From assembly GCA_964017185.1 (NCBI GenBank), contig OZ024871.1:8734214-8798213 (forward strand): a stretch of 64,000 bases of DNA. The letters run 5' to 3'. The notes beneath the pieces are model-generated. The model was not told where the DNA came from and searched no databases. It saw only the letters and a list, made by a program, of their open reading frames with translations. Made by a program: the position numbers and the translations under genes. The number at the start of each line of letters is the position of its first letter. Position 1 is the stretch's first letter. Positions 5,116 to 59,983 of the stretch are shown here, in pieces. This DNA is from Rugalucina vietnamica. Lineage: Eukaryota > Mollusca > Bivalvia > Lucinida > Lucinidae.

Positions 5116-5130
5116 AATCTACTTTAGTTT

Positions 5131-6759: not shown

Positions 6760-6935
6760 AACTTGACCATGCAATATACATGTATAGAGATTTTTTCAAA
6801 AGCAAAAACTAAAAATTTCACTGGAAAGATTTTGATATTTTTAATAACTTTGCACAAAACATTGATTGTGGGTACACGTTAGAACCACCTTGTCAAGGTG
6901 TTTCTAATGAGTACCCACAGTCTAGGTTTTAGATA
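6760..6935. mobile_element. Palindromic MITE family B
   Basis: It shows the family B core: 'gattgtgggtacacgttaga', an 'accacctTGtcaaggtgttt' centre, then 'gtacccacagtct'. Fuller copies at 41795-42060 and 51665-51945 show arms ending in 'gcatgggcatgttttcataa'-like sequence. Confidence 0.75.
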
Positions 6936-6947
6936 AACTAGAAATGC

Positions 6948-8572: not shown

Positions 8573-8919
8573 AAATAGGTACACCCCTGTAAACTCCAGT
8601 GTTACTGGGGTTATTCATTTCATGGACATCAGGTTTTCCTGATATTGGCATAGTCAGTAAGGAAATTAATGAAAGACTTAAAATGATTGTACAAGGCACC
8701 AATCTTCACCTTAAGTCTGCAAATTTTGGTGGTTCTGATAGTTTAAATATCTCAAAATTTAATACAACCAACAAGCAAAATGTAAAATACAACACATAGG
8801 ATGAGAACGAAAGCACAAGTTGTTATAGAGTGGTTCTAATTAACGCTTCCTAGCTTGTTAATGAAGGATCACAGACGGAACATATGTTAGCACTGTGATA
8901 AAAAAAAAAAATCAAATGA

Positions 8920-9625
8920 TGGACATCCTTAAATCAGCCTATTTATGGATATCCTAAATTCAAATAATTATGGATATCCTTAGTTCGAATTATGGATATC
9001 CTAAATTCATGACTATTTTTGGTTATCCATAAATACATTTCAGGATATCCTTAAGTAAGCTGATTTAAGGATATCCATATGGATATGGATATCCTTAATT
9101 CAGCATGATTTTTGGACAGCATGATTTTTGGTACAAGTAGGCAAAGATCAGGAAAAGGCGCAATCAGAAAAAGATTCCCACTCCAAAAACCGAGGTGGGA
9201 AAAAACCAAACTAACAATCAGGTACTTATACCATGAAACATATCGTAAGCCGAATGAGCAGCTATTTTCCCAATAGGTGGCCACTCAGTTACCTTAACTA
9301 AAAATATGAAAACATACATAAGGCGCCAACAGCACAAAAAATTTTTTAAACACCAAGACATAAAACAAAAAGAACCACTACAGAAGTATCGACTTGGAAC
9401 GATCAGTAACACAAAGTTACTGGCGGGCTTTATAATGTATTTATAGATATCCTCAATTCATTTATGGATATCCTATATTCATTTTCGGATACCCATAATT
9501 CATTTATGGATATCCTTAAATATTTTAGGATATCCAAAATTATTTTCCTTAATTCAATTTAGGATATGCATAAATGATATATGGATATCCAAAAATGAAT
9601 ATAGGATATCTATAAATAAGGAATA
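8920..9625. mobile_element. GGATATCC-rich element with a unique core
   Basis: Two clusters of the palindrome GGATATCC and close variants (8925-9100 and 9440-9615) flank a core at 9125-9425. The core matches 52570-52850 ('aagtaggcaatgatcagg' through 'acataaaacaataagaacca'), so it is itself a dispersed repeat. I see no coding capacity. Confidence 0.6.
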
Positions 9626-25037: not shown

Positions 25038-25798
25038 CTATTTCCTTGATATAATATGGTTTACAGTGACAAAACCTATTGCAGCAAATGCCCATATACA
25101 CACAATTAATATCCACACTATTCCCCTAAACGGTGAGGAATGTATATTTGGCTCTATAAACAGTGAAGACACCTGTTTCCGTGAGCAGTATACCAGGAGT
25201 GCTGGGATGATGTACTGGATCCCGGCCCCAGCGTACGACCCCGTGATCCCTACCAGAAACTCCACCTCATCGGTAATCAGGGCAACGATCATGGGCGGGA
25301 CTATCGCCAGTAGTGGGAACACGATCCTGTCAACCGACCAGCTGTATGGCTTCTCTGGGTTGTAACCTATTGCTTTCAAATTGTTCCGCAAGGTTATGCT
25401 GATAATTGGAAAATTTGTACTTAAGGTAAACACTGGAAATAAGGCTAAGAAGTACTGAATAAATTTCACACTTGTAATGGATTTCGAGCTATCACACTCA
25501 TCTGGTAAAAAGTTCAATGTATAGACATCTTCGAGTTTGTTGAAGGCGTATATTCCAGTGAACGCTAGCAGCATGTAGAACAGCAATATGAGGACATAGT
25601 CGGCAGCTAGAAGCTTGAACAACTTTGATTTATCCCTGATAGGGGTGACCAGCGACGGCAATGAGTGATGACACATGAAGGAGTACACACACACACCAAA
25701 CAAGTTGGGTATTCCATCCAATTGGGCAGCCGCTGGGTGACCTTCACCTTCGTTCTTAGCCAATCTCATCACAGCTAGGACTACCATCATACTGAATG
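25038..25798 (-). CDS. TMEM104: TMEM104 exon 10 (last coding exon, stop codon)
   Basis: The 761-nt terminal exon holds the C-terminal half. The acceptor AG is at 25800-25799 (the open frame continues into the intron, so the first Met in this frame is not a start). Visible blocks are GVCVYSFMCHHSLPSLVTPI, DYVLILLFYMLLAFTGIYAF, YTLNFLPDEC, FPVFTLSTNFPIISITLRNN, VDRIVFPLLAIVPPMIVALI, VGITGSYAGAGIQYIIPALL and a final transmembrane helix. The stop TAG is at 25040-25038. About five hydrophobic segments are evident. Confidence 0.97.
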
Positions 25799-37700: not shown

Positions 37701-40700
37701 GTGTGGGTACATTTTATTTTGCCTTTCTAAAATTTACATTTAGATGTTCTTGAGCAAATCAAAGTATTAGGAGCTGAGTCATAATACATGTCATAATAAT
37801 GCCTAGTTTTTGCACTATAGATGTGAAAACAAAATGTACATCAGCTGCAAGTATTGTCACCTTGTTCACATTATAAATACATGTAGAACAGTTTGTATAG
37901 TTCAAAATTTGCAACATTCATACGCAATAAACCCTAAAGAAATTAGCCGCCACATGACAAAACCAGCAATCTGGGTTTCCAACCAGGTACAACATAAACT
38001 GACCTGTAAAGTCACAGAAGCAAGCTAGAAGCTTGAAATTTCAGATTTAGGAAGAAGAGGCATTCTACTATCTACTGAGTGAAAACAAAGGCATTGATCT
38101 GCGCCTTTGGTTTCTTCTATGCGTATTATTGGTTTTCTAATGCAGTGGCTCATTAATGTTTTTTTTTCACAGAACAACTCGTTTCTCACCAGTTCAACCC
38201 TTTGTGTAATCTCAAATGGACTGGAAATATTTCTGTCTTCTGAAATATAACAGAAACATTGCTATTCAATTGCTATAAAACTGCAATTTCAACATATGAT
38301 ATGAGCCACCTCGTGGGAAAACCAACAATGTGGTTTCCGAACAGGTCCGACACAAACCGACCTGTACAAGCACAGAAAAGAGCTGGAAGCTTGAAACTTC
38401 GGATTGAAGTGGAAGAGGAATTGTACTATCCGAGTAGCGAAAACAAAGGCGCTGATCAGCTTCACGGTTACCGCGAAGCTGATCTGCGTCTTTGTTTTCG
38501 CCTATGCAAATTGTTGGTTTTCCCATGAGGCGGCTCATATATGAAAATTGACAATTTACAGATAAAAAAAAGAAGTCATACTTTATCTCATTTCTGAAAA
38601 GCATCATTATCTGACAGAGGATCATTATGCACCAGTCATTTATAACCATGGCACCCCCACCTACGGGGAAGGGTGGGGTATAGCGGGGCTAAAGTGCCGG
38701 GCAATTATTTTTTAATTGTCCCGGCAGTGCAGTGAAAATGACAGGGTTTTGATGTTCTGATCCTTACCCCAGGGAGACTTTCTATTGAGAGGGGCAGGGC
38801 AAAGAGCACAGTTTGACCTCCAGTTTGTCCCCTGGGTTTCGGGGTCTATAGCAGGGCATTGAAAACTGGACAGTCATAATCCCTGCACTTCCCAGGTGGG
38901 GAGCCGTGGTTACAAATGACTTGTGCATTATCAAAACTGCTCATAATTTAAGTTCATACACATCACAAACTGTATATAAATGTTGATTTTTTTAACTTTT
39001 CTTTATAGAAAAGTTCAACTTAAACATTTTTTTCATAACACCATACAATCCAAATGCTGTGTTTTATTTTGTTGTTTAGTATTTTACATAATACTAGTCA
39101 TGTCAGGATGCTAAATGCCATTAAATGTTGGGATTGTGCTTAAGAATATAAACATGGACAGCTTTAATATTTCTAATGAAGATTTTTCATTATCAACATG
39201 AAACTACACTTTTCTTTCAAGCATTCCGATTAACAATTGAGCTGTATCATGAGAACCAAAAATGTGGTTTTTCGAACAGGTCCAACACAAATCGAACTGT
39301 ACACGCAAAGAAGACTGCTAGAGGCTGGAAATTTTAGAATTAATAAGTAGAGGAAGTGTATTATCCATGTAGCAAAAACAAAGGCGCTGACCAGCTTCCC
39401 AGTTGATCTGCGCCTTTGTTTTCACATATGCAGATTGTTGGTTTTTTCATGATGCAGCTCAATATTACTATGTACCTTTGCCACCACCACCAATACAATG
39501 ACAATAACAAACTATGTGTGTTCTAAACTACAAAGCAAACTCTGTCCTAGTAAAGCTAGGATGAATAAAGAAGTAAACTAGCATCACATGGATATGTATC
39601 TAATTGGCATGCAAATTCCTCGCACATGTTTTGCAAATTAAGTCGCGGCCCTTTCACACGACATTCTCGTGCGAGTGTTGCACGATTGTTGCGAGAATAT
39701 TCATGTGTCACGAACTAGTCGCAAACTAGTCGCAAAGGTTTTAAACATGTTTAAAAATTTTGTGCAAATTTATTCGCCAAAATATTTTGCAAGACAGTCA
39801 TACCATGTTCGTGCAAGTGTTGCGAACATGTCGCCAAGGAATTTTGGCAAATTTTCAATGCAAAAATTTTGCGACACTCGTACTGGCGAGAAAATAAAAC
39901 TTAGAGACATTCGTATTAATGTCGTGAGGCATTCTCATGAATGTCTCGCGACTGTCTTAAGAATGAAAATAAAACTAAAAGTACATTCGTGGGAACTTCA
40001 TGAGACACTCTCAAAATGTTGTGCGACAGTCACGAAATATGTTTTCAAAATTAGACCAGATTTCACGAATTTGTCACATTAATGCCCATTCACTGAGACT
40101 GCAACATGAAAGTTGAGTTTATATCATTAATCTTTGTCGCGAAATAGTCGCAAACTAGTCTCCAGTTGTCGCATTCCAGTGAGATAGGGGCTTAATTGTG
40201 TGTAAATAATAAACAATAACTAGAATTTGTTTTCTATGTGAAAACTGATGTCTCCCCCCTTTCTACGTGCATGTCCAAAATATGCAAGCAAGAGTTATAG
40301 TTCTTGTGCATCACATATCCTGTCATTCTGTTTTATAAGTGTACCAAGTTTCATTGAAATATCTCTTACGGTTTTCAAGTTATAGAGGGGGCACGAAAGT
40401 GTTTGGAAAATAATGAAAGGGAAATAACTCCAAAGATATGAAAGCAAGAGTAATGATTCTTGTGCATCATGCTTTATAAGTGTACCATGTTTCATTGAAA
40501 AATCTGTAATGGTTTTTGAGTTATAGAGCAGACAAGAAATTGAATGAAAAATAATCAAAGGGAAATAACTCCAAAGACATATAAGCAAGAGTTATGGTTC
40601 TTTAGCATGACACATCATCTCATCATGCTTTATAAGTGTACCAAGTTTCATTGAAATATTTCTTATGGTTTTCAAGTTATAGAGCGGACATGACATTGTA

Positions 40701-43700
40701 TGGAAAAATAATCAAAGGGAAATAACTCCAAAGATATGAAAGCAAGAGTTATAATTCTTGCGCATGACACATCGTCTCATCATGCTTTATAAGTGTACCA
40801 AGTTTCACTGAAATTTCTCTTACGGTTTTCAAGTTATAGGGTGGACACGAAATTGTATGGAAAATAATCAAAGGGAAATTACTCCAAAGATATGCAAGCA
40901 AGAGTTATGGTTCTTTAGCATGACACGTAATCTCATCATGCTTTATAAGTGTACCAAGTTTCATTGAAATAACTCTTACGATTTTTGAGTTATAAAGCGG
41001 ACATGAAATTGTATAGAAAATAATCAAAGGGAAATATCTCATAAAATACTCAAGCCAGAGTTATGGTTCTTGTGCATGACACATTGTCTGATCATGCTCA
41101 ATAAGTGTAACAAGTTTTATTGAAAAATCTTAAACGGTTTTCAAGTTATACAGCGGACACGAAATTGTATCGAAAAATAATCAAAAGGAGATAACTCCAA
41201 AAATACTCAAGCCAGAGTTATGGTTATTGTGCATGACATATCGTCTCGTCGTGGTCTACACGTGTACCAAGTAATACAGCGGACACGAAATTGTATCGAA
41301 AATAATCAAAGGGAAATAACTCCAAAAATACTCAAGCTAGAGTTATGGTTCTTGTGCATGACACATCGTCTCGTCGTGGTTTACAAGTGTACCAAGTTTC
41401 ATTGAAAAATCTTTAACGGTTTTCAAGTTATAGAGTGGACACGATTTGTGACGGACAGACAGACAGACAGACAGACGGACAGTCACACGCACGAGGAAAA
41501 ACAATATGTCTCCCGACCCTGTCGGGGGGAGACATAATTCACAGGACAACAAAAGTGTTTGTGAAAGAGCCCTTTGGTGATGCCACACATAAACATTTAT
41601 GATGCCCGAGAATGATTCCACAGAAAAGCATTGCAGAAATATGAATTTCTGTCTATCTTTTTGGTCATGTTAGAATGGAAGAAAACTTTATTTTTTTTGT
41701 CTTTGTGAATCATCTTTGTAAAAAAAAAACATGATGTTATCAGGTGTGGCAATTCGCTTCAGCTGCACCATCACAAATTAACATCAGGAACACATGTCCA
41801 TGAAAAGTATACCCACTTGAACCTAACTTTTATATAGAAAAACTGGCGTTTGCAGGGATATACCTACTTTTTCTTATTTTTGCTCCAAAACGTAGACTGT
41901 GGGTACTCGTTAGAACCGCCTCACCGAGGCAGTTCTAACCTGTACCCACAATCAATGTTTTAAGCAAAAATAAGAAAAATAATAATTTTTTTTTTGATGA
42001 AAATTTTCATATATTAGAACTTTTAAAATCTCTGTATATTGCATGGGCATGTTTTGGCACTGATGATAATTTACAAGCCACCCTCAGAATCCCTAGATTA
42101 ATAAAAAAAAAATGCAGTAAAGAAAAAACATATTTCTTAAATAAAACAGGGAGTAAGTAAATATATAGAAAGGTTTATATACTGTTATATAATTCATATA
42201 ATTATAATATATAAATCCAAAGAAAAGTGTCGGCAATTTTTTACACGTTGAGAAACATTAGGAGCAGCATCTGTTTTTGTTGCATTTTTAGCTCACCTGA
42301 GCCGAAGGCTTACAAGGTGAACTTATAGGATGGCCATGATCCGGCGTCCGTCCGTCCTTCGTCCGTCTGTCCATCGTCCACAATTTCAAAGATCTTCTTC
42401 TCTGAAACCACTGAAATGATCAAGTTGAAATTTTATGTGGAGCCTCCTTGGGTAGTGGCATTTATGTTTTGTTTGCGGTAACTTGATCACATGACCAAGT
42501 TGGCCGCCACACCCATATTTGATAAAAACCCTTCAAAAATCTTCTTCTCCAGAACCGGCAGGCCGATTTTCACGAAACTTGATATGTAGCATTTGGGACT
42601 CCAGCCCATCATAGTTTGATCAAATGATGACTGTAGGATGACCTTGACCTATTTTACGGCAAGGTCAATTTTGGAAACCATAGGCTTTTACATGGGAAAA
42701 AGTGAAAACTACGGATTTTTTTAAAACAATTGCAGCCTGAAACCTGAAAAGTGGTAGATGCAAACAACTAATGGAGTAGATGAAGGGTATGTGATTAATT
42801 TAGGTCAAGGTCATTTCTTGACCTTGGCCAGTCTGTAGTCCATACACACTTTTCAAAGATTTTCTTCTCTGAAACTGCTTGGCCAATCAAAGTGATATTT
42901 TATGTGGAGCATCCATGGTAGGGGGAACGAAAGTTTGATCATGAAATCCGGGTCACATGACCAAGATGGCCGCCATGCCCATATATGGTAAAAAACACTC
43001 AAAAATCTTCTTCTCCAGAACCGGCAGGCCGATTTTCACCAAACTTGGTATGTAGCATTTGGGACTTCAGTCCATCACAGTTTAATCAAATGATAGGCCT
43101 AGGATGACCTTGACCTATTTTACGGCAAGGTCAATTTTTGAAACATGGCTTTTACATGGAAAAAGTGAAAACAGGCTGTCAACCAAGTCTTCTAAAAAAT
43201 ATAGGAGTTTAAGTAGGAATTTTTTCTAAGAAATATAGGAGGTTTTAGCTCATTTTGAGGAAAAAATATAGGAGTTTTCTCGTGAAAATTGCTTCATTCT
43301 ATGCTCTTATACTAACAATCCTTACCTCCACTCTCACTTTTTCTACATTAATTAATGCCTAAAGTATCTAGATAAGGCTATAACCATTCAGTTCCACAGC
43401 ATCACAATCCAGACAGGTGACCATTCATGTGATAATGAAGTTTGCTGAAGCATTATGCAGGATGGTGATACTACACAGGCCCATTAGCTGACTCTCACAG
43501 AATTAAAGGTTTTTTTTTTTTTTATATAAGGGTTTTTCATTGAAAATATATATATACAAGAATAAAGTGAAAATTAAAGTCAACTTTTTCTCTACATCTA
43601 AACTTAGACCTCCTTTTATTTTTCACACTGATCATTTATAAAAGAAGAAAATATAAAATTTTCATATAGTGAAAGAGTGAGTTATCATATTCTTTCTCAA

Positions 43701-52700: not shown

Positions 52701-55700
52701 ATATTCCCTATGGGTGGCGACTCAGTTATCAAAACTTAACTAACGCTATGAAAACGTACATAAGATACTAACCTGCTAACAGCACAAAAATACACCAATA
52801 ATAGACATAAAACAATAAGAACCACCACAGAATGACAGTAATACCGCATTATTATTATACTAAAATTGATAAATGATAAAATTGATAAATACGTTCCGGT
52901 ATAGAGAACAAAGTTAGACTGGGTGTTATAGTTCCCGGACGATCAGAGCATTACGAAAACATGCCTTGCATGCAACATACAGAGATTTTAAAAATTGTAA
53001 AAAATTAAAATTTTCAGTAGAAATTTTGATATTTTTTCTTATTTTTGCTCAAAACATAGATTGTGGGTACAAGTTAGAACCGCCGGTCAGCCGGTTCTAA
53101 CGAGTACCCACAATCTAAGTTTTTGTAGTAGGACGCCCGTGGGTCGGGACAACGCTCACTAAAAGTAAACTCGAGTGCATAAGCACTAAAACTGAACGAC
53201 GGACAGAGCCGGTTAAACTGGTGCGATCAGGTGAGCGATACGCACAAAAGGCAAACCCGAGTCCCACAAGTATGCCTAGGGTGACTTTGACTGGGCCGCT
53301 GTCACCCCCGTGGACCGTATAGTGTAGGTTCGATCTCAAGGATACAAGATGGTTGTTTTGTGGGGAGCAAAGTCAGTGAAAATGCAGTTTAAAATTTAAC
53401 TATTTTATTTACAATTAATTCCAAGTGATTTAATGAAGTAATGAACTGAATTTGATTTAGAATTGAAGTTAAAGCTGCATTTTTAATGTTTAGTTTGAAT
53501 TATCCTAGCGGATTGGTTATGAAATATGAGGTGAAACCAAATGGGCTTAAAATTTAGGGGGTGGGAGAATTTAGAAAAAAGGATCCAAAGTTTGGGCGTG
53601 AGTTACAGCATATAGCATGCCGTTCTTTCAGCACATCGCGTGCCGACCTTTCACATTTAAAAACTAGGGCCAAAAGGGACAGCGCGCATACATGCAAATA
53701 TTTTGCCAAAGTTACTACATAGTTAAGCCAAGAAAGTATTGATTTGATTTACAAGTATATCAAACTCAATTACACTAGAAAAAGGTGCAAAGTACAAAAT
53801 CACTAATTTTAGTGTAAACAAAGTTCAACAAATGTTATCAATTAATCATCGCATTTGAACTAAGAAATGTAATTCAATTCAAGAATTACTTATTGAAAGT
53901 AAAATTTATGACAAAACATCAAGTTTTCATAAATGAAATTGCCAAAGTTAAAGTTACTTCCCTTGAAATTCAAGTAAACTTTTAACAAGTTACGGCTTTT
54001 CAAATGAAAATTGCTCTCAATAGGCAAATGTAGATAAATTTCAAAATCACTGCAAAGCAGTCCTACTACATTCGTCCATTCTTTCTGATAAAAATATGCA
54101 ATATTTTTAAGGAAAACAAAATCAACAGTATGACAATACAATGAATTTCAAAATTGCAATGTTGTAAGCATCATGGTAATCATCATCGGATCACATCTGG
54201 ACAGCGATTGTCAGCGACATCAGGCTTCGTCTCATCAACCGTCTAGTGGGCATGAACCATCTCACATCTGGGGTAGGATAATGCTTTGTATAACGTTAGC
54301 ATTATGTACACAGGATGTCAACATCGAAAGGAAACATCAAGTTGTACCATTGCCATAGCATATACATGTACCAGTATGTATCCCATTAATTGCAGATGGT
54401 ATTCGATTGTCAAGGTCGCCATATGACCATTTACCAAAGACAGGCTGTACCATATACCAAAACGTAAACGTTGTACACCATATACCAAAGTAACAAAGTC
54501 ATCATCATTTCGTTGTACCATTTAGTTGGCATTCTATTATCAGTTAGGTTGTAAATAATTATAATCATCTGCTATCCCATGTAGCAATGACATGATAAGA
54601 TGTGTACCAAACATCTGAATGTAGTCTATGATGTGTACCAAACATCTCAATGTAGTTTGTTTCAAACATCATCATGTACCAAAGACTGACATGAGGAACC
54701 AAAAATTGTCATCATCAGTTGTACCAAAGACCTATGTCATCAGCTGAACCAACACTCAAAGCCATCAGGAACCGATGTCGTACCATATGCCAAGACAATT
54801 TAGAAATATTTAAAATATACTCATATTCCAATGAGTATGAAATATAATTGTCATTGTTTTCTGAATATAAATTTTTGCATCTCTAACCAATCCATATATT
54901 TACAATCAGTGCTTTTGACTACAGACTTATGTAATTAATAAACAAACATTTTTATTTGATTTTTAGTTTATAGTAGTTTTTATTTGATTTTATTTTTATT
55001 TTTCATTTTGTCTGTATTTTATATGTTTTGTCAGCACTGACAAATACTGATTTTAAAAGGTAAAAATTAATCAGGTCTGTATTCGGCAAGAGAGCTGTCA
55101 CATATTCTATATTTGGTCAGTGACAAAAGACAAGTCGGATTAGACATGCTTATACCAAAGACTCTTTGACCTAGTTTCTGACTGTCACATATCAAAGATG
55201 CTGTTGCATTTGCAAATGTGAACTGTCTTTGACAGCTTCTTGGACACAGATATTCTGATATGAGCTCAAATATAAAGGCAAGCATAATGAATGCTCCCTC
55301 ATACTTGATATCTGATCCCTGAGTTGTGTCATTGATATCATTGTATGGCCTTTCAGAATTGCTCTGGACTGAAACTCCGGCCTCGAGATCAGTCCTATCT
55401 CTTTTACTGGAATGTTGCTTTCAGCATGCTCAGAGAAAAGTCTATCTAAATAGAGAGGACTGTCTGAGTATGTTATGTCACTCATCACAGACTCAACAAG
55501 TGTCTCTCTATCAGATTTGTCACAGTAAAATTTGTCAGTTACACTGTCATTACCACTGAACCCTGACTCCTGTGATATCAAATTACAACTCCGAGCAGAA
55601 ACTATTTGCTCAGGTGAATACACACTTTCAGGATCAGGTATTGCTGCAATCAGCTGACTTTGTATTGAGTCAATGTCTTTTATTGTGCTATTCATTTCAG

Positions 55701-58700
55701 AAACTGAACAAGCATACTGAGCATTTTCAGAATTATGGTTGCTTTTCAGATTGTCAGATTTGATCTCAAGCTGTATGATTTGATTAAATTGCTTAGATTC
55801 AATGCCATTTATGATCTGATCTGATTTTGTATCGGTGATTTCGGAATTTAACTCATTTTCGCAGCTGCTCAGCAATGAATCGTTTGATTCTGTTTCAGTG
55901 TTTTGTGATTTGATATCATTTTGACAGTCATTTATCAATGAGTCACATGAATCTGGTTCTATGACTTGTTCAATAATTTCAATTTGTGATTCAGATTCTG
56001 ATTCAATACTGCTTTGCTCATCTTTGCTTTGAGTTAAATACAGTTTAGCTAAGGCAATTTGAGTATTATATAAGATTTCTGCTAACTCTAAATTGTGCTT
56101 AACTGTTTTAGCTTCTTTGCTTGCAGTGCACCCTACCTCATGAGTCATTTGATTTGATTGACTGTACCCTGGATTAACAGTTTTAATGTCTTTAGGATAA
56201 CAGTATTCTTGCGTTACAGTTTTGGTTTGCATTGTCTGACTGTAACCTTCATTTGCAGTTGCAATGCTATTTGATTGACTGTATCCAGGAGTATTAGTTT
56301 CAATTTCTTTTCGTTGACTGTAACATTGAGGTGTAGTCTTATTTTGAATTGTGTGACTGTAACCATTAGTAGCAGACACATTTTGATTTGGTTGACTGTA
56401 ACCATGAGTAACAGTATCAGTTTCACTTGAATGACTGTAACCTTGAGATGAATTACTGTACTCTTGAGGTTTAGTTTTATTTTGCATTGGCTGACTGTAA
56501 CCATGAGTTGCAGTTGCAATTTTATTTGATTGACTGCAACCTTGAGTTGCAGCTTCATTTGAATACCCATACTCTTGGGTTGCAGATCTATTTTGCATAG
56601 GCTGACTCAGACTGTAGCCTTGCATAGTATTTTCAACTTTGTTTAGTTGACTGTAACCTTGAGTGTCTTCCCTCACACAAGTGGGGCTAGCCTGGGATGT
56701 AAGGACTGGCTTTGAATACCTTCGGTACAGATGGGTACATATGATCATTAGATCCTGGGAGCCTTTCGTCCCTATAATGTGTATGTGGGGTAAGGACATG
56801 AGCCCTATAAGGTTCTGTGAACCGCTGTTCCTCAAAGTGTGAGGATGGTATATGGTCTAAATGACCTAGTTGACCTCTATTCCCTACAGTAAATGTGGGT
56901 AAGGCATGTGGTCTATGAGTAAACAACTCTTGATAAGGCCTATCCCTAACATGTGTAGGGGGTATATTATGAACAGGGCCATGAGTGAATAACTCTGGAT
57001 GAGGCCTATCCCTTACATGAGTAGGGGGTATATTATGAATAGGGCCATGAGTGAGTAACTCTGGATGAGGCCTATCCCTAACATGAGTAGGGGGTATATT
57101 ATGAACAGGGCCATGAGTGAATAACTCTGGTTGAGGCCTATCCCTAACATGAGTAGGAGGTATATTGTGAATAGGGCCATGAGTGAGTAACTCTGGTTGA
57201 GGCCTATCCCTAACATGAGTAGGGGGTATATTATGAATAGGGCCATGAGTGAGTAACTCTGGTTGAGGCCTATCCCTAACATGAGTAGGGGGTATATTAT
57301 GAATAGGACCATGAGTGAGAAACTCTGGTTGAAGCATATCCCTAACATGAGTAGGGGGTATAGTATTAAAAGATCCATGAGTGAGAAACTCTGGATTAAT
57401 TCTATCTCTAGCATGAGTAGGGGCTATATTTTGAACAGATCCATGAGTAAGTAACTCTGGATAAACCCTATCTCTAGCATAGGCAGGGGACATATTGTGA
57501 CTAGGCATTCCTGCACAATATTGTCTATCACTGTGATATTGAAAGCTCATTTTGTAATGAATTTCACAACTGAATTCTATATGCAGTAATGGCTATTTTG
57601 AACACTTAAACTAAGTGTAATTTCGTTTGATTTTAATTCTATTTCACTGTAAATGCAGTTGAACCTTAAGTTATATTTGATAATGACCATTTGATTTGAT
57701 TTGATTCAATTTTATTAGAAACTATTTCAAATTTTATTTCCGTACACAATGATAAGTAATTCCTATCTTGACTTTACATTAAGCCTACAATTTAATTTTC
57801 AGATCCTACAATTTATTTCTTTTCTTTGCTTCGCGTTGTGTTTGATTTTTAAAGTTTAATTTGCATACTAAGCTTGAACACTTGATATGCTATGATATTT
57901 TCCTAAGAAAGAAATACTATTTTATTTCTGACTATGCTTAACCACAAACACCAAAGCTTGTATCCTGGTCACTACGCACCAATGTAGTAGGACGCCCGTG
58001 GGTCGGGACAACGCTCACTAAAAGTAAACTCGAGTGCATAAGCACTAAAACTGAACGACGGACAGAGCCGGTTAAACTGGTGCGATCAGGTGAGCGATAC
58101 GCACAAAAGGCAAACCCGAGTCCCACAAGTATGCCTAGGGTGACTTTGACTGGGCCGCTGTCACCCCCGTGGACCGTATAGTGTAGGTTCGATCTCAAGG
58201 ATACAAGATGGTTGTTTTGTGGGGAGCAAAGTCAGTGAAAATGCAGTTTAAAATTTAACTATTTTATTTACAATTAATTCCAAGTGATTTAATGAAGTAA
58301 TGAACTGAATTTGATTTAGAATTGAAGTTAAAGCTGCATTTTTAATGTTTAGTTTGAATTATCCTAGCGGATTGGTTATGAAATATGAGGTGAAACCAAA
58401 TGGGCTTAAAATTTAGGGGGTGGGAGAATTTAGAAAAAAGGATCCAAAGTTTGGGCGTGAGTTACAGCATATAGCATGCCGTTCTTTCAGCACATCGCGT
58501 GCCGACCTTTCACATTTAAAAACTAGGGCCAAAAGGGACAGCGCACATACGTGCAAATATTTTGCCAAAGTTACTACATAGTTAAGCCAAGAAAGTATTG
58601 ATTTGATTTACAGGTATATCAAACTCAATTACACTAGAAAAAGGTGCAAAGTACAAAATCGCTAATTTTAGTGTAAACAAAGTTCAACAAATGTTATCAA

Positions 58701-59983
58701 TTAATCATCGCATTTGAACTAAGAAATGTAATTCAATTCAAGAATTACTTATTGAAAGTAAAATTTATGACAAAACATCAAGTTTTCATAAATGAAATTG
58801 CCAAAGTTAAAGTTACTTCCCTTGAAATTCAAGTAAACTTTTAACAAGTTACGGCTTTTCAAATGAAAATTGCTCTCAATAGGCAAATGTAGATAAATTT
58901 CAAAATCACTGCAAAGCAGTCCTACTACATTTTGTAGCAAAAATAAGAAAAATAGGTAAACCCCCGCAAACCCCAGTTTTTCTATATAAAAGTGGGGTTT
59001 AAGGGGGTATACATTTCACGGACATGTTTTCTTGATGGTAGACTTTCGTCACAGCATTTACCGTTATAAATAAATATGAATGACACCCCTATTCTTATTG
59101 ATCAAATACATTCATTCCATTCATATGTATAACGGTCAACCTGTGACTTAAGTCTACTCTGATCGTCCGGGAACTATACCAGGTCTGAATTATGGCGGTC
59201 TAAATGTAAATAATATATCTGATTTATAATTTCAAATCTTAATCTATTACATTTACACTTTGTTTTTTTTCCGCTGAGCACTTCATAAGTTCAGCCAAAA
59301 AAGACCACTCCTCAGCCCAGAAAAGCTACTCGTCCCATAGGGCGAGCATATGGAAACTTCCACTCGTGAAACCACCGCGTTCAGGCGACAGCCAGACCAC
59401 ATACTTTCCTTCAGGTTCTTGATTAATTTCTTTTCAGAAATATTAGTCCATATGCTGGGATGCAACTGTGCACCGCAACCTACAAAATAGGTATGTAGCA
59501 CAGAAATTCCTGTACAAAACCACAGAGCTATTGAAATGCCCTTCCGCATTATGACTGACCCTGATGCGTTTTTTACGCAAGAAATTAAGAATGGCAGAAC
59601 CTATGCACCAGTCATTTGCAACCACGTCCCCCTCGGGGCCGGGGAATAGCGGGGATATTGACTTTTCTCTTTCCAAAGCCCGGGTATATGCCCAGCACTG
59701 CAGGGATACTCTTATGGTCAAAGCTCTGCGAAAGTCCCCGCTCAAATCCCGGCAGGTAAATGTAAATTTTCATGGCCATTTTGGGACAGGAATCAAAACC
59801 CCTGCTATTCCACGGCACTGCGGGGACAATGCTGAAGTCAAAACCCTGCAGTTAAGCCCGGCTATGCCCCCGCTATTCCCGGCCCCGAGGGGGCCGTGGT
59901 TGCAAATGACTGGTGCACTAAATCTGTAAGAAATAACTCACACCAGTGGAATATTGGGTTCCAGTGTCTGTGATCCCAGCCAT
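25038..59983 (-). CDS. TMEM104: TMEM104 orthologue, complete 10-exon gene (spans include introns)
   Basis: Multi-pass integral membrane protein of the amino-acid/auxin permease superfamily; the substrate of TMEM104 is not established. I assembled it exon by exon from conserved blocks, in order: GLIYVFNLIVGTGALTMPQA in TM1, an acidic cytosolic linker, PFEITQRVELGQM, YLYGDLAIYAAAVP, an extracellular-type loop with NTS and NRT sequons and a CW, FFNVQKTKYLQ, GVCVYSFMCHHSLPSL, FPVFTLSTNFPI and VGITGSYAGAGIQYIIPA. The joined frame is 1473 nt (490 residues plus stop), close to the roughly 496 residues of the human protein. All nine introns are GT-AG, and the phases (0,2,0,1,0,1,2,0,1) are mutually consistent, which is strong evidence for an intact functional gene. 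Introns total about 33 kb and are mostly transposon. The 5'UTR, any upstream non-coding exon and the poly(A) site were not determined. Confidence 0.93.
25865..26140 (+). mobile_element. SINE-like family G repeat
   Basis: Contains 'agtcaacagctaaggtcatg', 'acgtatgaatggtttgactt', 'cagacctgagcagttaacca' and 'gtaatctgatggtcagtcag'. An inverted copy lies at 31390-31730 and another at 63565-63760. It starts about 65 bp from the acceptor of TMEM104 exon 10. Confidence 0.7.
26811..26904 (-). CDS. TMEM104: TMEM104 exon 9
   Basis: 94 nt; acceptor AG at 26906-26905, donor GTAGGT from 26810. It encodes AVFFVTLGWFSFFNVQKTKY then LQLITTASRWI, matching FTFFDVQKTKYLQ...MRWI. It ends in phase 1 and joins exon 10 to give Ala. 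A hairpin MITE (26928-27170) starts 23 bp before the acceptor. Confidence 0.94.
26928..27170. mobile_element. Hairpin MITE (second copy of the 6364 family)
   Basis: Same ends (GGGCCCAGTTGTTCGAAA... and ...TTTTGAACAACTGGCCCC) and the same central hairpin as 6364-6607, here with a few mismatches. It lies 23 bp from the acceptor of TMEM104 exon 9. Confidence 0.82.
27836..28047 (-). mobile_element. Hairpin MITE family A
   Basis: Diverged copy: 'catgagaaaaaccagttttt' to 'ctcatgctatggttcat'. It ends 18 bp from the donor of TMEM104 exon 8. A truncated neighbour lies at 27742-27803. Confidence 0.75.
28066..28186 (-). CDS. TMEM104: TMEM104 exon 8 (lumenal/extracellular loop)
   Basis: 121 nt; acceptor AG at 28188-28187, donor GTATGT from 28065. 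It encodes the loop TYKLPPQNTSGGTCNRTL, then VESDPCW and NSYRIFV. Two N-glycosylation sequons (NTS, NRT) and the Cys/Trp pattern match the vertebrate loop. Hairpin-MITE copies end 18 bp beyond the donor and start about 30 bp before the acceptor. Confidence 0.92.
28219..28432 (-). mobile_element. Hairpin MITE family A
   Basis: 'gagccacgacgcgagaaaac' to 'ttctcatgacgtggctcat'. It starts about 30 bp before the acceptor of TMEM104 exon 8. A diverged third copy continues at 28433-28640. Confidence 0.82.
28683..28918 (+). mobile_element. Hairpin MITE family A, well preserved
   Basis: 'gagccgccgcatgggaaaac' to 'ttctcatgcacaggctcat', with the hairpin arms CAAAGGCGCAGATCAGCTTC and 'gaagctgatcagtacctttg' around 'acagtaactgc'. 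Confidence 0.87.
28975..29175 (+). repeat. Dispersed repeat H, copy 1
   Basis: 'gaatgggttttccaatcatt', 'tgggtgagtccattctaatt', 'cagaatagccccagatggg' and 'aggtttaaatgagttaa' recur in the same order at 36985-37200. Nature unknown; possibly SINE-like. Confidence 0.6.
29951..30105 (+). mobile_element. Hairpin MITE family A, diverged
   Basis: 'gaggcgcttcatgcgaaaac', 'gttactgcacagctgatcag' and 'aatttcaagcgtctaaattc' follow family order, with part of the hairpin lost. Confidence 0.6.
31390..31730 (-). mobile_element. SINE-like family G repeat, inverted copy
   Basis: Reverse complement of the repeat at 25865: 'gaaatagatgggcttctttt', 'cttattactggttaaccgct', 'aggtctgagcctgaccagga' and 'ccatccatacgtataagccg'. 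Confidence 0.7.
31770..31925 (-). mobile_element. SINE, 5' truncated
   Basis: Carries tail and body ('gtttaacgtctctttcaata', 'gctcatatgagacgggccaa', 'gaaccccgagagaaaaaaac', 'gaacttggcttgtctcacat') but lacks the tRNA head seen at 5466-5740. Confidence 0.8.
31930..32690. other. AT-rich DNA inside the 4.3-kb element
   Basis: No ORF of note. Copies of the GTTACATACGTTACG motif occur near 32092 and 32432. Confidence 0.4.
33557..34124 (-). mobile_element. Hairpin MITE family A split by a nested element
   Basis: The MITE runs 33557-33744 and resumes at 34093 ('caaaaatccagttttctcat'). Its sequence is contiguous once the insert at 33745-34092 is removed. Confidence 0.8.
33745..34092. mobile_element. 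348-bp inverted-repeat element nested in a MITE
   Basis: The ends are CCATATTCATTCTAATTAGC and 'actaattagaatgaatatgg', inverted. The interior is AT-rich and non-coding. It must be younger than the MITE it interrupts. Confidence 0.75.
34140..34560 (+). mobile_element. tRNA-headed SINE-like repeat
   Basis: The head 'acaacggcctagtggttaaa' (A-box-like) with 'ggtcctgggtttttacacca' (degenerate B box) is followed by 'cctccgccaggaaggtaaaa'. The tail 'gaatgggacattaaaccaca' ends about 10 bp before the TMEM104 exon 7 donor. Confidence 0.55.
34572..34671 (-). CDS. TMEM104: TMEM104 exon 7
   Basis: 100 nt; acceptor AG at 34673-34672, donor GTAATG from 34571, phase 1 to phase 2. It encodes IGVLLFNLCIVIYLYGDLAI and YAAAVPKSIRDVAC, a highly conserved transmembrane block. 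A SINE-like tail ends about 10 bp from the donor. Confidence 0.94.
34690..36475 (+). repeat. AGGTCA-family repeat, four tandem units
   Basis: Four units of about 440-460 bp, each with 'ttgaccttgccgtaaaatag' then 'gtcaaggtcatcccagggtc' (34781, 35238, 35690 and 36148 regions), 'tggttctggagaagaagatt', 'gccatggcggccatcttggt' and 'tatacatgtatatagccccg'. It ends with a GACGGACGGAC microsatellite and 'actataagctcggctcaggt'. Confidence 0.88.
36480..36735 (-). mobile_element. Two degraded hairpin MITE family A copies
   Basis: 36480-36612 ('gtagcaaaaacaaaggcgct', 'ttgctggttttctggtgcat') and 36615-36735 ('ccttcgcatggaaaaaaaac', 'ccaaaacaaaggtgatgatc') keep family order but have lost large parts. Confidence 0.65.
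36931..36961 (-). CDS. TMEM104: TMEM104 exon 6 (31-nt micro-exon)
   Basis: Acceptor AG at 36963-36962, donor GTAAGT from 36930. It encodes GQMASLFFNK plus the first base of the next codon; GQMAxxFFNK is invariant in the family. At 31 nt it is easily missed by automated gene finders. Confidence 0.93.
36985..37200 (+). repeat. Dispersed repeat H, copy 2
   Basis: Same order of blocks as at 28975-29175, ending 'ggcttaaatgagttaac'. It lies 24 bp from the acceptor of TMEM104 exon 6. Confidence 0.6.
37205..37690 (+). repeat. Tandem repeat, ~62-67-bp unit
   Basis: Imperfect copies of 'atacaaatcattgcaatatt', 'ttcagctacatgtatatatg' and 'aattaaagcaaaacattcag' recur six or seven times. The left copies are shorter and more diverged. 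Confidence 0.85.
37944..38153 (-). mobile_element. Hairpin MITE family A (36 bp from TMEM104 exon 5)
   Basis: 'tagccgccacatgacaaaac' to 'ggttttctaatgcagtggct'. The central hairpin is reduced. Confidence 0.8.
38190..38239 (-). CDS. TMEM104: TMEM104 exon 5
   Basis: 50 nt; acceptor AG at 38241-38240, donor GTGAGA from 38189. It runs phase 1 to phase 0 and encodes EDRNISSPFEITQRVEL, matching PFEITDRVEM of human TMEM104. Copies of the same hairpin MITE lie on both sides: one ends 36 bp beyond the donor, the other starts 63 bp before the acceptor. Confidence 0.93.
38303..38537 (-). mobile_element. Hairpin MITE family A, well preserved
   Basis: 'gagccacctcgtgggaaaac' to 'ttttcccatgaggcggctca', with an intact hairpin (GCGAAAACAAAGGCGCTGAT / 'ctgcgtctttgttttcgc') around 'cacggttaccgcg'. 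Confidence 0.87.
38638..38927. mobile_element. PIF/Harbinger-like MITE with TTA duplication
   Basis: TGCACCAGTCATTTATAACC at left, 'acaaatgacttgtgca' at right. TTA is present on both sides (38635-38637 and 38928-38930). A 290-bp GC-richer interior, non-coding. Confidence 0.85.
39238..39461 (-). mobile_element. Hairpin MITE family A
   Basis: 'gagctgtatcatgagaacca' to 'ttttcatgatgcagctca', with the partial hairpin 'gcaaaaacaaaggcgctgac' / 'tgatctgcgcctttgttttc'. Confidence 0.83.
39640..40195 (+). mobile_element. TCGCGAC-rich inverted-repeat element, copy 2
   Basis: The right end 'attccagtgagataggggct' matches the left end of copy 1 (19062). The interior is the same CACTCGTACGAATGTCGCGA-like material. 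A 137-residue frame is open on the plus strand at 39669-40082. Confidence 0.75.
40248..41535. mobile_element. Inverted-end element carrying ~150-bp tandem units
   Basis: It begins 'atgtctccccccttt' and ends 'gggggagacata'. About eight units of roughly 150 bp carry 'gcaagagttatggttcttgt', 'ttataagtgtaccaagtttc', 'ttgaaatatctcttacggtt' and 'ggaaataactccaaagatat'. A CAGA microsatellite (41455-41475) precedes the right end, paralleling the element at 6948-8572. Confidence 0.82.
41795..42060. mobile_element. Palindromic MITE family B, near full length
   Basis: Outer arm 'tttatatagaaaaactggcg', inner arms 'gtgggtactcgttagaaccg' and 'tctaacctgtacccacaatc' around the centre 'cctcaccgagg', closing 'tattgcatgggcatgttttg'. 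Confidence 0.83.
43173..44357. mobile_element. Non-autonomous hAT-like element (1185 bp)
   Basis: A 14-bp perfect TIR AGGCTGTCAACCAA is flanked by the 8-bp duplication GTGAAAAC (43165-43172 and 44358-44365). Subterminal copies of AATATAGGAG crowd both ends, more densely on the right. Deleting the element and one duplication restores the interrupted AGGTCA-family repeat exactly. No transposase ORF. Confidence 0.92.
44644..45609 (+). pseudogene. Decayed mariner-like transposon
   Basis: A left terminal-like sequence (TACAGTCGGAAAGTTCCCGG at 44646) is followed by plus-strand fragments. These include IFQEDNAIRSSIVTCIDDY (mariner-type 'QDNA..H.S' catalytic Asp block) and, after a stop, YTRDLAP, which matches the Y-S-P-D-L-A-P-C-D hallmark with lesions near 45365-45415. 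Multiple stops and frameshifts make it dead. An opposite-strand ORF at 44678-44920 is unassigned. Confidence 0.6.
46404..47044. mobile_element. Inverted-repeat element with GGACAAAACACC ends
   Basis: AGGACAAAACACC at left and GGTGTTTTGTCCT at right. The next ~90 bp inward also pair ('cggacaaaactccctcactc' with 'gggagggagtttgtccaagg'). Interior non-coding. No clear target duplication. Confidence 0.7.
47200..47435. mobile_element. Family B core inserted in hairpin MITE family A remnants
   Basis: Family A start ('gagaaaacctgtttttcgg') and end ('ggttttctcatagtgggctc') flank family B material ('cccacaatctacgttttgag', 'tattgcatgggcaagttttc'), suggesting nesting with deletions. Confidence 0.5.
47650..47900. 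mobile_element. Palindromic MITE family B, diverged
   Basis: 'ttatatattaaaactggggt', 'gattaagggtattcgattag', 'taacgtgtacccacaatcaa' and 'tgttttgagcaaaactattg' keep family order. Confidence 0.7.
48212..48284 (-). CDS. TMEM104: TMEM104 exon 4 (acidic cytosolic linker)
   Basis: 73 nt; acceptor AG at 48286-48285, donor GTAGGT from 48211. Only one frame is open. It reads SINEDIHVPEDVEE then TTPLINNIEN and ends in phase 1. The sequence is poorly conserved but acidic, as is the corresponding linker of other TMEM104 proteins. It is placed by splice-site quality, order and phase rather than by identity. Confidence 0.78.
48335..48702 (+). mobile_element. Hairpin MITE family A, fragment plus full copy
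   Basis: 48335-48442 is a half copy ('gtttccacacaggtttgaaa', 'actgtacagctacagaagat'). 48473-48702 is a full copy ('gagccgagtcatgagaaaac' to 'ttctcatgaggcagctcat') with the hairpin present. Confidence 0.78.
49000..49078 (-). CDS. TMEM104: TMEM104 exon 3
   Basis: 79 nt; acceptor AG at 49080-49079, donor GTATGT from 48999. The first base completes the Ser codon split from exon 2. It encodes YLTVTFVTETMATSNALL and RTEVYRTR, equivalent to the FVTTTFVIEAMAAANAQL region of vertebrate TMEM104. It ends in phase 0. Confidence 0.92.
49597..49833 (+). mobile_element. Hairpin MITE family A, well preserved
   Basis: 'gagccgccgcatccgaaaac' to 'ttctcgtgcacaggctcat'. The hairpin CAAAGGCGCAGATTAGCTTC / 'gaagctgatcagcgcctttg' is nearly perfect around 'gcagttaactgc'. 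Confidence 0.88.
49911..50032 (-). CDS. TMEM104: TMEM104 exon 2 (TM1-TM2)
   Basis: Acceptor AG at 50034-50033, donor GTATGT from 49910. The 122 nt encode the family-defining segment VGLIYVFNLIVGTGALTMPQ followed by AFSTAGW and a second hydrophobic stretch. The exon ends in phase 2 (ATG AG). A hairpin MITE begins only 21 bp upstream of the acceptor (50054), so it must overlap the branch-point region. Confidence 0.93.
50054..50288 (-). mobile_element. Hairpin MITE family A (21 bp from exon 2 acceptor)
   Basis: 'gagccgccttgtgggaaaac' to 'ttttcccatgtggcagctca'. The hairpin core 'cagcttcgcagttactgcga' is perfect. Confidence 0.88.
50383..50541 (-). mobile_element. Hairpin MITE family A, truncated
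   Basis: Starts inside the family at 'aagcttgaaatttcggattt' and runs to 'ttctcatgatgcagctca', retaining the hairpin. Confidence 0.78.
50810..51024 (+). mobile_element. Hairpin MITE family A
   Basis: 'gagccaccgcattggaaaac' to 'ttttcacacgcacaggctca', with hairpin 'cagcttcgcagtaactgcga'. Confidence 0.85.
51075..51215 (-). mobile_element. tRNA-headed SINE fragment
   Basis: On the minus strand, 'gcatggtggtctattggtta' followed by 'agcgtcagactctgaatcaa' and 'tcctggatttgaccctcact' has A-box and B-box spacing. The 3' body is short and degenerate. A genuine tRNA gene is unlikely: no pairing acceptor stem was found. Confidence 0.55.
51665..51945. mobile_element. Palindromic MITE family B, full length
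   Basis: A long palindrome from 'aaaacatgcccatgcaatat' to 'tattgcatggacaagttttc', centred on 'agtcgcctcaccgatgtggt'. One of the best-preserved copies. Confidence 0.85.
51950..52560. other. No gene; partial similarity to the 6948 element
   Basis: AT-rich. 'gtttatgaaacactatgcct' near 52292 resembles the left end of the element at 6948. No exon signal. Confidence 0.4.
52570..52850 (+). repeat. Dispersed repeat matching the 9125-9425 core
   Basis: Shared blocks include 'aagtaggcaatgatcaggaa', 'taacaatcaggtactcatac' and 'acagcacaaaaatacaccaa'. Here the GGATATCC clusters are absent, so the core moves or is copied independently of them. Confidence 0.6.
53124..54070 (-). repeat. 3' LTR of the retroelement
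   Basis: Same length and termini as the 5' LTR. The offset between the two is exactly 4859 bp at both ends, so there is no net indel between them. Confidence 0.9.
54071..55191 (-). other. LTR-element interior, non-coding part
   Basis: AT-rich. It contains short repeats of 'tgtaccaaacatct' and 'ataccaaa' (54410-54790). No ORF of note. It lies between ORF2 and the 3' LTR, where pol would be expected in an autonomous element. Confidence 0.5.
55192..56835 (-). CDS. LTR-element ORF2, GYSQ-repeat and acidic protein
   Basis: Open for 547 codons, overlapping the end of ORF1 by 149 nt in the +1 frame. No ATG is at the 5' edge; the first is at 56799. The first ~200 residues carry about 15 copies of a GYSQ-centred unit (for example THGYSQPMQNKT), rich in Q, N, S, Y and T and resembling low-complexity prion-like regions. 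Next comes a predicted helix (NLELAEILYNTQIALAKLYL). The rest is acidic and Ser/Asn/Glu rich. No enzymatic motif is seen. It may be expressed by frameshifting from ORF1, or the two may be one ORF broken by a 1-nt indel. Confidence 0.55.
   Translation of the reverse strand: MRNSGSQNLIGLMSLPHIHIIGTKGSQDLMIICTHLYRRYSKPVLTSQASPTCVREDTQGYSQLNKVENTMQGYSLSQPMQNRSATQEYGYSNEAATQGCSQSNKIATATHGYSQPMQNKTKPQEYSNSSQGYSHSSETDTVTHGYSQPNQNVSATNGYSHTIQNKTTPQCYSQRKEIETNTPGYSQSNSIATANEGYSQTMQTKTVTQEYCYPKDIKTVNPGYSQSNQMTHEVGCTASKEAKTVKHNLELAEILYNTQIALAKLYLTQSKDEQSSIESESESQIEIIEQVIEPDSCDSLINDCQNDIKSQNTETESNDSLLSSCENELNSEITDTKSDQIINGIESKQFNQIIQLEIKSDNLKSNHNSENAQYACSVSEMNSTIKDIDSIQSQLIAAIPDPESVYSPEQIVSARSCNLISQESGFSGNDSVTDKFYCDKSDRETLVESVMSDITYSDSPLYLDRLFSEHAESNIPVKEIGLISRPEFQSRAILKGHTMISMTQLRDQISSMREHSLCLPLYLSSYQNICVQEAVKDSSHLQMQQHL
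56687..57550 (-). CDS. LTR-element ORF1, 24-residue tandem repeat protein
   Basis: 287 residues from an ATG at 57550-57548 with A at -3, 432 nt downstream of the 5' LTR. After a short N terminus (MSFQYHSDRQYCAGMPSHNM), residues 20 to about 215 consist of eight or nine copies of a 24-residue unit (THGPIHNIPPTHVRDRPQPE plus LL). The DNA unit is 72 bp and the central copies are nearly identical. The C terminus is rich in His, Pro and Tyr. No zinc knuckle, capsid-type or catalytic motif is visible. Position suggests a gag-like structural product, but this is inference. I do not recognise the family. Confidence 0.6.
   Translation of the reverse strand: MSFQYHSDRQYCAGMPSHNMSPAYARDRVYPELLTHGSVQNIAPTHARDRINPEFLTHGSFNTIPPTHVRDMLQPEFLTHGPIHNIPPTHVRDRPQPELLTHGPIHNIPPTHVRDRPQPELLTHGPIHNIPPTHVRDRPQPELFTHGPVHNIPPTHVRDRPHPELLTHGPIHNIPPTHVRDRPHPELFTHGPVHNIPPTHVRDRPYQELFTHRPHALPTFTVGNRGQLGHLDHIPSSHFEEQRFTEPYRAHVLTPHTHYRDERLPGSNDHMYPSVPKVFKASPYIPG
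57983..58929 (-). repeat. 5' LTR of the retroelement
   Basis: 947 bp, TG...CA, with an 11-bp terminal inverted repeat TGTAGTAGGAC/GTCCTACTACA. It differs from the other LTR at about four positions by eye (two near 58545-58552, one near 58614, one near 58661), implying recent insertion. Confidence 0.9.
59604..59917. mobile_element. PIF/Harbinger-like MITE beside TMEM104 exon 1
   Basis: TGCACCAGTCATTTGCAACC and 'ttgcaaatgactggtgca' ends, flanked by CTA on both sides (59601-59603, 59918-59920). The donor of TMEM104 exon 1 begins 24 bp away. Confidence 0.88.
59942..59983 (-). CDS. TMEM104: TMEM104 exon 1 (start codon)
   Basis: The ATG is at 59983-59981. Fourteen codons read MAGITDTGTQYSTG, matching the N terminus of TMEM104 (MAGxITxTGxxYS). 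The donor is GTGAGT at 59941-59936, phase 0. A competing GT two bases earlier would break the frame with exon 2. A 314-bp PIF-like MITE ends 24 bp inside the following intron. Confidence 0.88.

What the first reader, a model, noticed from the sequence alone, without database searches (positions are those of the whole stretch)
53124..58929. Young LTR retroelement with two novel ORFs and no polymerase
The structure is complete: matched 947-bp LTRs differing at about four sites, TTTT duplication, primer-like site and polypurine-like tract. The interior encodes no recognisable pol domain. Instead it carries about 2.36 kb of overlapping ORFs made of repeats unlike the Gag proteins I know. A recently mobile, non-autonomous family with preserved long ORFs suggests the proteins matter for packaging or mobility, or that a host sequence was captured.
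Basis: partly seen in the sequence, partly recalled or inferred. Interest (0 to 1): 0.8.

Follow-up and report, generated by a model that had tools for sequence, protein, structure and literature searches.

The report
Pol-less LTR retroelement with gag-like gene
This is a young, polymerase-less jumping element of an animal-like genome that keeps one gag-like gene and shares its end signals with complete Ty3/Gypsy retrotransposons in the same genome, which probably move it; such gag-only passengers are known from plants, and this is a variant of that kind.

Summary
In detail: 947-bp LTRs differing at 4 sites, TTTT duplication, no pol, about 2.36 kb of repeat-rich reading frame on the minus strand. 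The window's own genome (1.09 Gb) holds at least 9 interiors of the family at 8 loci, plus LTR-only copies; no family pol was seen in them. The "two ORFs" are one ORF with a frameshift private to this copy; two siblings have it unbroken. Two ORF types exist: type A has a stretch I read as capsid-like (unproven); type B (the window) lacks it. Constraint on the ORF is weak (omega 0.54-0.78) but its indels keep frame. The family is mosaic: ORF ends of the two types differ by 20-24%, their 3' UTRs by 4-7%. A U5-leader RNA helix enclosing the primer site is kept through changes on both sides. A pol-bearing Ty3/Gypsy relative on contig C11 shares LTR, LTR border, U5 hairpins and GYSQ repeats upstream of its protease; a more distant Gypsy lineage with long open pol frames shares border and, weakly, hairpins. 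Best reading: a non-autonomous, gag-derived passenger mobilised in trans by such Gypsy elements, comparable to plant TR-GAGs. New variant of a known kind.

The parts
57983..58929 (-). 5' LTR (element sense), starts TGTAGTAGGAC and ends GTCCTACTACA
   Evidence: same ends in siblings
53124..54070 (-). 3' LTR, 4 transitions from the 5' LTR
53120..53123 (.). target-site duplication TTTT
   Evidence: 4-bp duplications in siblings
58930..58933 (.). target-site duplication TTTT
57967..57981 (-). primer-binding site TGGTGCGTAGTGACC; two siblings have TGGTGCCGTGACC, which I recall as the complement of the eukaryotic tRNA-His 3' end
   Evidence: tRNA assignment from memory, consistent with PMC10886601
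58199..58243 (-). 5' arm of the U5-leader RNA helix
57918..57965 (-). 3' arm of the U5-leader RNA helix, just after the primer site
58076..58194 (-). conserved U5 hairpins (covariance model R1); second copy at 53217-53335
57551..57982 (-). leader between 5' LTR and ATG, includes the primer site
56687..57550 (-). ORF1, 287 aa: 5' part of the ancestral ORF, nine 22-aa PTHVRDRPQPELLTHGPIHNI-type units
55192..56856 (-). ORF2 frame, 554 aa stop to stop: 3' part of the ancestral ORF, GYSQ-type 13-aa units, then a Ser- and acid-rich C-terminal region
56148..56663 (-). 39-nt (13-aa) repeats similar to repeats upstream of the protease in the C11 Gypsy relative
55195..56100 (-). C-terminal coding region, weakly constrained; no relative found outside the family in this genome
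54071..55191 (-). 3' untranslated region, 4-7% divergent between ORF types over its last 880 nt
54071..54086 (-). polypurine-like tract AGAAAGAATGGACGAA before the 3' LTR, similar in Gypsy relatives

Best explanation
A non-autonomous Ty3/Gypsy-derived LTR retrotransposon that lost protease and pol and keeps a single gag-derived ORF. The LTR drives a transcript whose U5 pairs with the leader to enclose the primer-binding site. The RNA is probably packaged in particles of a related autonomous Gypsy lineage of the same genome, primed by a tRNA (probably tRNA-His), copied by the helper's reverse transcriptase with frequent template switching between co-packaged copies, and inserted by the helper's integrase with a 4-bp duplication. 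The element's own protein most likely acts as a Gag-like RNA-binding or assembly partner. Shown here: structure, youth, no pol seen in siblings, frame-keeping indels, mosaic history, the conserved helix, signals shared with pol-bearing relatives. Inferred: transcription, packaging, helper identity, template switching as the cause of the mosaic, protein role.
For: Nine interiors at 8 loci; the frames of 120 aa or more listed from the sibling loci show no pol except element T at C1_889, which belongs to another family. LTR K2P 0.000-0.0078 in 9 comparisons. Unbroken open frames of 788 and 792 aa stop to stop (768 and 788 from ATG) in C1_939 and one C3_149 unit. Type A against B: 5 of 5 C-terminal coding indels are multiples of 3, mixed lengths in the 3' UTR; 0.04% of 5000 neutral simulations stay stop-free; omega 0.54-0.78. 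Pol-bearing relative at C11:41.88 Mb with aspartyl protease, RT, RNaseH and IN, GYSQ repeats in the protease ORF, LTR 93% identical over 541 nt to C2_785's, LTR-border match 18 of 25, 0 of 200 shuffles as good. Second lineage (C11:25.5 Mb), integrase 66% identical, frame 1529 aa: border 20 of 25, 0 of 200 shuffles, U5 model E 0.017, LTR pairs about 10-11 kb apart. Unrelated element T as control: 14 of 25, 196 of 200 shuffles, E 4.4. The U5 model also finds the first relative at E 1e-16, but C2_785, whose LTR is 93% identical to it, was among the 8 training rows. Mosaic distances. Helix energies.
Against: The capsid-like stretch of type A has no Pfam match, no credible structure match and no hhalign match to T's Gag; type B copies, including the window, lack it. 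The GYSQ match is to repeats: another place, C1:46759788, matches about as well by E-value (4.7e-8, 31%, ten in-frame stops) as C11 does (1.8e-8, 40%), so the link to C11 rests on the LTR and border together with the repeats. No relative outside the family was found for the 300-aa C-terminal region. The C11 relative is interrupted by a LINE, shows no 5' LTR hit, and its gag proper was not seen. Omega intervals reach 1 in 4 of 5 comparisons. Five of nine ORFs are broken by frameshift or stop. The window's primer site departs from the recalled tRNA-His complement after about 7 nt. The U5 match to the second lineage is weak. Helper primer site and gag could not be fetched.
Confidence: 0.8

Rival explanations
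1. Plain internal-deletion derivative: the ORF is a decaying remnant of gag without function and mobility depends only on cis signals (LARD-like).
For: Omega is only 0.54-0.78 with intervals reaching 1 in 4 of 5; 5 of 9 ORFs are broken: window, C1_889, C2_785, C2_493 and one C3_149 unit; type B lacks the capsid-like stretch and still moved recently. I raised this from 0.30 after the recount found the break in C1_889.
Against: About 18% nucleotide divergence between types over the whole C-terminal region without stops (0.04% of simulations) and only frame-keeping indels; breaks differ between copies.
Confidence: 0.35
2. Interfering satellite: the gag-derived protein enters or jams the helper's particles and the element lives as a parasite of its helper.
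For: Gag-side origin and shared border and U5 signals with pol-bearing relatives; repetitive, fast-changing ORF.
Against: No direct evidence of interaction; CA homology unproven.
Confidence: 0.15
3. A captured host sequence supplies the ORF.
For: No Pfam match; the C-terminal region is an orphan. The ORF1 search also lists weak matches outside the family on C7, C5, C13, C17, C3 and C14 (E 6e-13 to 7e-4, 14-26% identity, several with in-frame stops), some in open frames of up to 556 aa; these were not read.
Against: Those matches cover the 22-aa repeat region at low identity, as repeats of similar composition would; strong matches are in family copies only; the GYSQ region adjoins a protease in a Gypsy relative.
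Confidence: 0.05

Closest known systems
TR-GAG (terminal-repeat retrotransposons with GAG domain, plants)
   Same: LTRs and a single Gag ORF, no pol; one Arabidopsis copy reported to transpose, with a related autonomous element as possible helper (PMC8704663, passages read)
   Different: Host is animal-like; the ORF is not recognised as Gag by profile, is repeat-rich and comes in two types, one without the capsid-like stretch
LARD / BARE2-type non-autonomous LTR elements (recalled)
   Same: LTR element thought to move in trans
   Different: LARDs have no ORF; BARE2 lacks gag function, whereas this keeps a gag-side ORF and lacks pol (all recalled)
Animal TRIMs: Helenus and biv-TRIM
   Same: Non-autonomous LTR elements; animal Helenus makes 4-bp duplications and is attributed to Gypsy helpers; bivalve Helenus families use several tRNAs including tRNA-His (PMC10886601: abstract, passages, section 16; biv-TRIM, PMC6934838: abstract and one results section)
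   Different: TRIMs are under about 1 kb and code for nothing; here 5.8 kb with a long ORF and no tRNA-like LTR by ARAGORN or Rfam
Ty3/Gypsy retrotransposons (C11:41.88 Mb and C11:25.5 Mb lineages of this genome)
   Same: LTR ends, polypurine-like border, U5 hairpins; GYSQ repeats in the first
   Different: The first carries protease, RT, RNaseH and IN and a GDSL-like ORF; of the second only integrase frame and 3' end were seen

Membership tests
LTR retrotransposon | Paired LTRs, target-site duplication, primer site, polypurine-like tract | tested here: met
   tRNA complementarity not tested against this genome's tRNAs
Ty3/Gypsy (as source) | PR-RT-RNaseH-IN order in a relative with related LTR | tested here: met
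Autonomous element | Encodes pol | tested here: not met
   window frames; sibling frames listed, one type A ORF scanned; pol found in other elements
TR-GAG | LTR element with one Gag ORF and no pol | tested here: inconclusive
   Single ORF without pol met; Gag identity rests on position next to protease in a relative; capsid domain unproven
TR-GAG | Related autonomous element in the same genome | tested here: inconclusive
   A related pol-bearing element exists but is interrupted; a more distant lineage has long open frames and LTR pairs and shares border and U5
LARD | No coding capacity | tested here: not met
   open frames of 788 and 792 aa, frame-keeping indels
Helenus TRIM | tRNA-like sequence in a short LTR, element under about 1 kb | tested here: not met
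   947-bp LTR; no tRNA by ARAGORN or Rfam
Active retrotransposition | New or polymorphic insertions | not testable with these tools
   Only one assembly; LTR divergence suggests recent activity

The most novel reading that the evidence does not exclude
An animal satellite retroelement built as a fixed chassis of cis signals (LTR, U5-leader helix, 3' UTR) into which alternative gag-derived ORFs are exchanged by template switching, and whose own protein is required, together with helper Gag, for its packaging. One of the two ORF types would work without a capsid domain.
Probability: 0.25. Interest if true: 0.65.

Novelty: new variant of a known kind. Interest (0 to 1): 0.45.

Why it matters
It ties a coding but pol-less family to candidate helper lineages in the same genome through several signals, so helper-passenger specificity (LTR ends, U5 hairpins, U5-leader helix) becomes testable. 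In the listings of my searches the TR-GAG term itself appeared in plant papers, and related terms in one brown-alga paper (PMC12477816, not read); I saw no animal case, but these were listings, not an exhaustive search. The compensatory U5-leader helix and the ORF mosaic show what selection keeps and what it lets go.

Tried and rejected
Rejected: the pol between LTRs at C1_889 as family pol. The stretch (T, 2741 bp) is the 3' part of another element: positions 12 to about 2610 recur at three other loci and parts at four more at 94-98%, without our LTR in the listing; no primer site follows our LTR there. T's upstream part was read as a control. Rejected: larger copies as autonomous. Their extra DNA shows tandem satellite, inverted-repeat ends or 2.2-kb direct repeats; three frames from it have no Pfam match; the rest was not scanned. 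Rejected: a programmed frameshift between ORF1 and ORF2 (siblings read through). Rejected: tRNA-like LTR.

Led nowhere: the viral-contig scan with the first 305 aa of a type A ORF found no relative; sequence searches of solved structures gave only Plectin, E 0.18 and 0.91; hhalign of the capsid-like stretch to T's Gag gave nothing. T's Gag is itself not recognised confidently by Pfam (best 0.018, below cut-off), so Pfam negatives on gag carry little weight.

Dropped before counts: searches used 4 of 9 interiors; C5_241, C6_713, C2_785, C2_493 and the second C3_149 unit were left out because of insertions, breaks or near-identity. One search used 7 copies in the C-terminal table, and its C5_241 and C6_713 rows include tails changed by insertions. 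One search used 7 copies: C2_493 left out because its LTR is interrupted there, the second C3_149 unit because it is near-identical. One search did not measure C5_241 and C2_493. Searches scored 40 of 61, 47, 318 and 162 candidates, so copy counts are lower bounds.

Not answered. The pattern search for LTR end plus primer site and the Pfam Retrotrans_gag search did not complete.

Full report
Structure. The element spans 53124-58929 and reads on the minus strand. Its 947-bp LTRs differ by 4 transitions. TTTT flanks both ends. Four-bp duplications also flank C1_939, C3_149, C6_713, C2_785 and C2_493, and 6 of 7 solo LTRs examined; the seventh (L049) and the rearranged C1_889 show none, and C5_241's right end is incomplete. 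The LTR ends are 11-bp inverted repeats, TGTAGTAGGAC and GTCCTACTACA. The window is G000:C3:8734214-8798213 of an unnamed 1.09-Gb genome. That the host is an animal, perhaps a mollusc, is my inference and was not tested.

Family. A search with the LTR gave 49 matching stretches, 40 of 61 candidates scored. Interiors occur at 8 loci, 9 in all because C3_149 is a tandem LTR-interior-LTR-interior-LTR; these are lower bounds. Nine LTR comparisons at 6 loci give K2P 0.000-0.0078; three of them are at the rearranged C1_889 and two at the tandem C3_149. The frames of 120 aa or more listed from the sibling loci show no family pol. The extra DNA in larger copies shows satellite, inverted-repeat ends and 2.2-kb direct repeats. 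The pol fragment between LTRs at C1_889 belongs to another element, T, found at other loci.

The ORF. C1_939 and one C3_149 unit have unbroken frames of 788 and 792 aa stop to stop, 768 and 788 aa from the ATG. C6_713 (719 aa) and C5_241 (694 aa) are open up to extra DNA that cuts the C-terminal end. The window copy, C1_889 (frameshift near the N-terminus besides an insertion; 673 aa open downstream), C2_785, C2_493 and the other C3_149 unit carry frameshifts or stops: 5 of 9. The window's ORF1 and ORF2 are the two halves of this one ORF. Type B (window, C1_889, C5_241, C2_493) has 22-aa repeats. Type A (C1_939, C3_149, C6_713, C2_785) instead has a stretch of about 110 aa that I read as a Gag capsid C-terminal domain; it was found at 5 places, all type A. 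This reading is by eye: Pfam, structure-sequence and hhalign searches do not confirm it, although T's Gag also escapes Pfam.

Constraint. Between types A and B the C-terminal coding region is 82% identical, keeps frame through five indels of 3, 3, 3, 6 and 9 nt, and has no stops; 0.04% of 5000 neutral simulations do so. UTR indels are of mixed length. Omega is 0.54-0.78 in 5 comparisons; the upper bound of the 95% interval lies below 1 in one, at 1.00 in one and above 1 in three. Constraint is visible on frame and weak on sequence, and the many broken copies count against a strong one.

Mosaic history. Types A and B differ by 20-24% in a 690-nt C-terminal coding stretch, but by 3.6-6.9% in the last 880 nt before the 3' LTR. 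C2_785 differs from C1_939 by 0.7% in that coding stretch, 5.0% in the 3' UTR, 5.6% in the first third of the LTR and 28.1% in the last third (windows). Exchange between copies, as by template switching of co-packaged RNAs, is the simplest account. It is inferred, not observed.

RNA structure. The U5-leader stretch of the window folds at -114 kcal/mol, z -4.24, 0 of 100 shuffles as good. U5 pairs with the leader just beyond the primer site in the predicted folds of 7 of 8 copies folded, partly in C1_939; the eighth, C2_493, has its LTR interrupted there. Duplex energies of native arms: five type I copies -31.9 to -38.9; C2_785, with diverged U5 and leader, -33.7. C2_785's U5 with type I leaders gives -22.9 to -25.8, and type I U5 with the C2_785-type leader -25.4 to -29.7. 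C1_939 natively has such a mismatched pair, -26.6. Without the shared core, the WIN and C2_785 pairings beat all of 2000 shuffles each. The helix thus survives through changes on both sides, with C1_939 as an exception.

Relatives with pol. The ORF2 protein hit C11:41890154-41890669 (40%, E 1.8e-8), on the same strand as, and 15 kb upstream of, an LTR of the C2_785 type. A degenerate place on C1 matched the repeats at a similar E-value (4.7e-8, 31%, ten in-frame stops), so the repeats alone would not suffice. The C11 stretch reads, in order: GYSQ repeats and aspartyl protease in one 471-aa frame, a LINE insertion, RT, RNaseH, integrase, a GDSL-like ORF below Pfam's cut-off, and an LTR. Its LTR is 93% identical to C2_785's over 541 nt and 72% to the window's. 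Its LTR border matches the family's in 18 of 25 positions (0 of 200 shuffles). The C11:25.5-Mb lineage, with 66% identical integrase in a 1529-aa open frame, matches in 20 of 25 (0 of 200). Control T matches in 14 (196 of 200). A covariance model of the family's U5 hairpins finds the first at E 1e-16 (its near relative C2_785 was in the training set), the second at E 0.017, and T only at 4.4. The second lineage has LTR pairs 10-11 kb apart at C11:8.74, 19.8 and 25.5 Mb, each LTR 94-100% to the query, so candidate helpers are present, though I read only a 3' end of one. Primer sites and gags could not be read.

Primer site. Two copies carry TGGTGCCGTGAC, which I recall as complementary to the eukaryotic tRNA-His 3' end; the window and others carry longer variants. 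A bivalve Gypsy (Gypsy-39_CGi) is reported to use tRNA-His, and animal Helenus elements, attributed to Gypsy helpers, make 4-bp duplications (PMC10886601, section 16 read). I did not retrieve this genome's tRNA-His.

Judgement. The finding is a pol-less Gypsy derivative with a gag-side ORF, probably moved in trans by relatives that share its end signals (0.8). It resembles plant TR-GAGs, one of which has been reported to transpose (PMC8704663, passages). Formal membership stays open because the Gag fold is unproven. After the recount (5, not 4, broken ORFs of 9) I raised the rival of a functionless remnant from 0.30 to 0.35.

Noticed in passing
window 1-5115: Large 66-bp satellite array, about 48 plus 20 copies in two blocks.
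   Followed up: no
window 34751-36380, 40274-41397 and 7203-8491: Further tandem arrays with periods of about 454, 125/156/313/469 and 121/316 bp.
   Followed up: no
window 52924-53123 and 58931-59181: The insertion site lies in an inverted-repeat structure: 25-bp arms 52924-52948/59157-59181, 22-bp arms next to the element, and a 32-bp hairpin ending at the LTR.
   Followed up: no
window 25038-25871: Frame with an amino-acid transporter domain, Aa_trans E 2.4e-16.
   Followed up: partly
G000:C1:88897241-88916960 (L032, L033): Family LTRs alternate with copies of the 3' part of element T, without a 4-bp duplication; looks like unequal recombination.
   Followed up: partly
L032, about 4574-9436: An insertion with 2.2-kb direct repeats (98%) and about 0.44 kb between them; just outside one repeat is a stretch I recall as a tRNA-Leu 3' end with CCA.
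   Followed up: no
L053 3548-4138: GDSL/SGNH-like ORF between integrase and LTR of the C11 Gypsy, Pfam E 1.9e-4, below cut-off. GDSL-type extra ORFs are, as I recall, known from bdelloid rotifer LTR elements; PMC5408684 was seen in a search listing only.
   Followed up: partly
window 55195-56100: The 300-aa C-terminal region has no relative outside the family in this genome.
   Followed up: partly
G000:C7:6779699-6780280 and places on C5, C13, C17, C3, C14: Weak matches to the ORF1 repeat region outside the family, E 6e-13 to 7e-4, 14-26% identity.
   Followed up: no
primer sites: Three primer-site variants, two of them longer than the recalled tRNA-His complement, among young copies; unexplained.
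   Followed up: no
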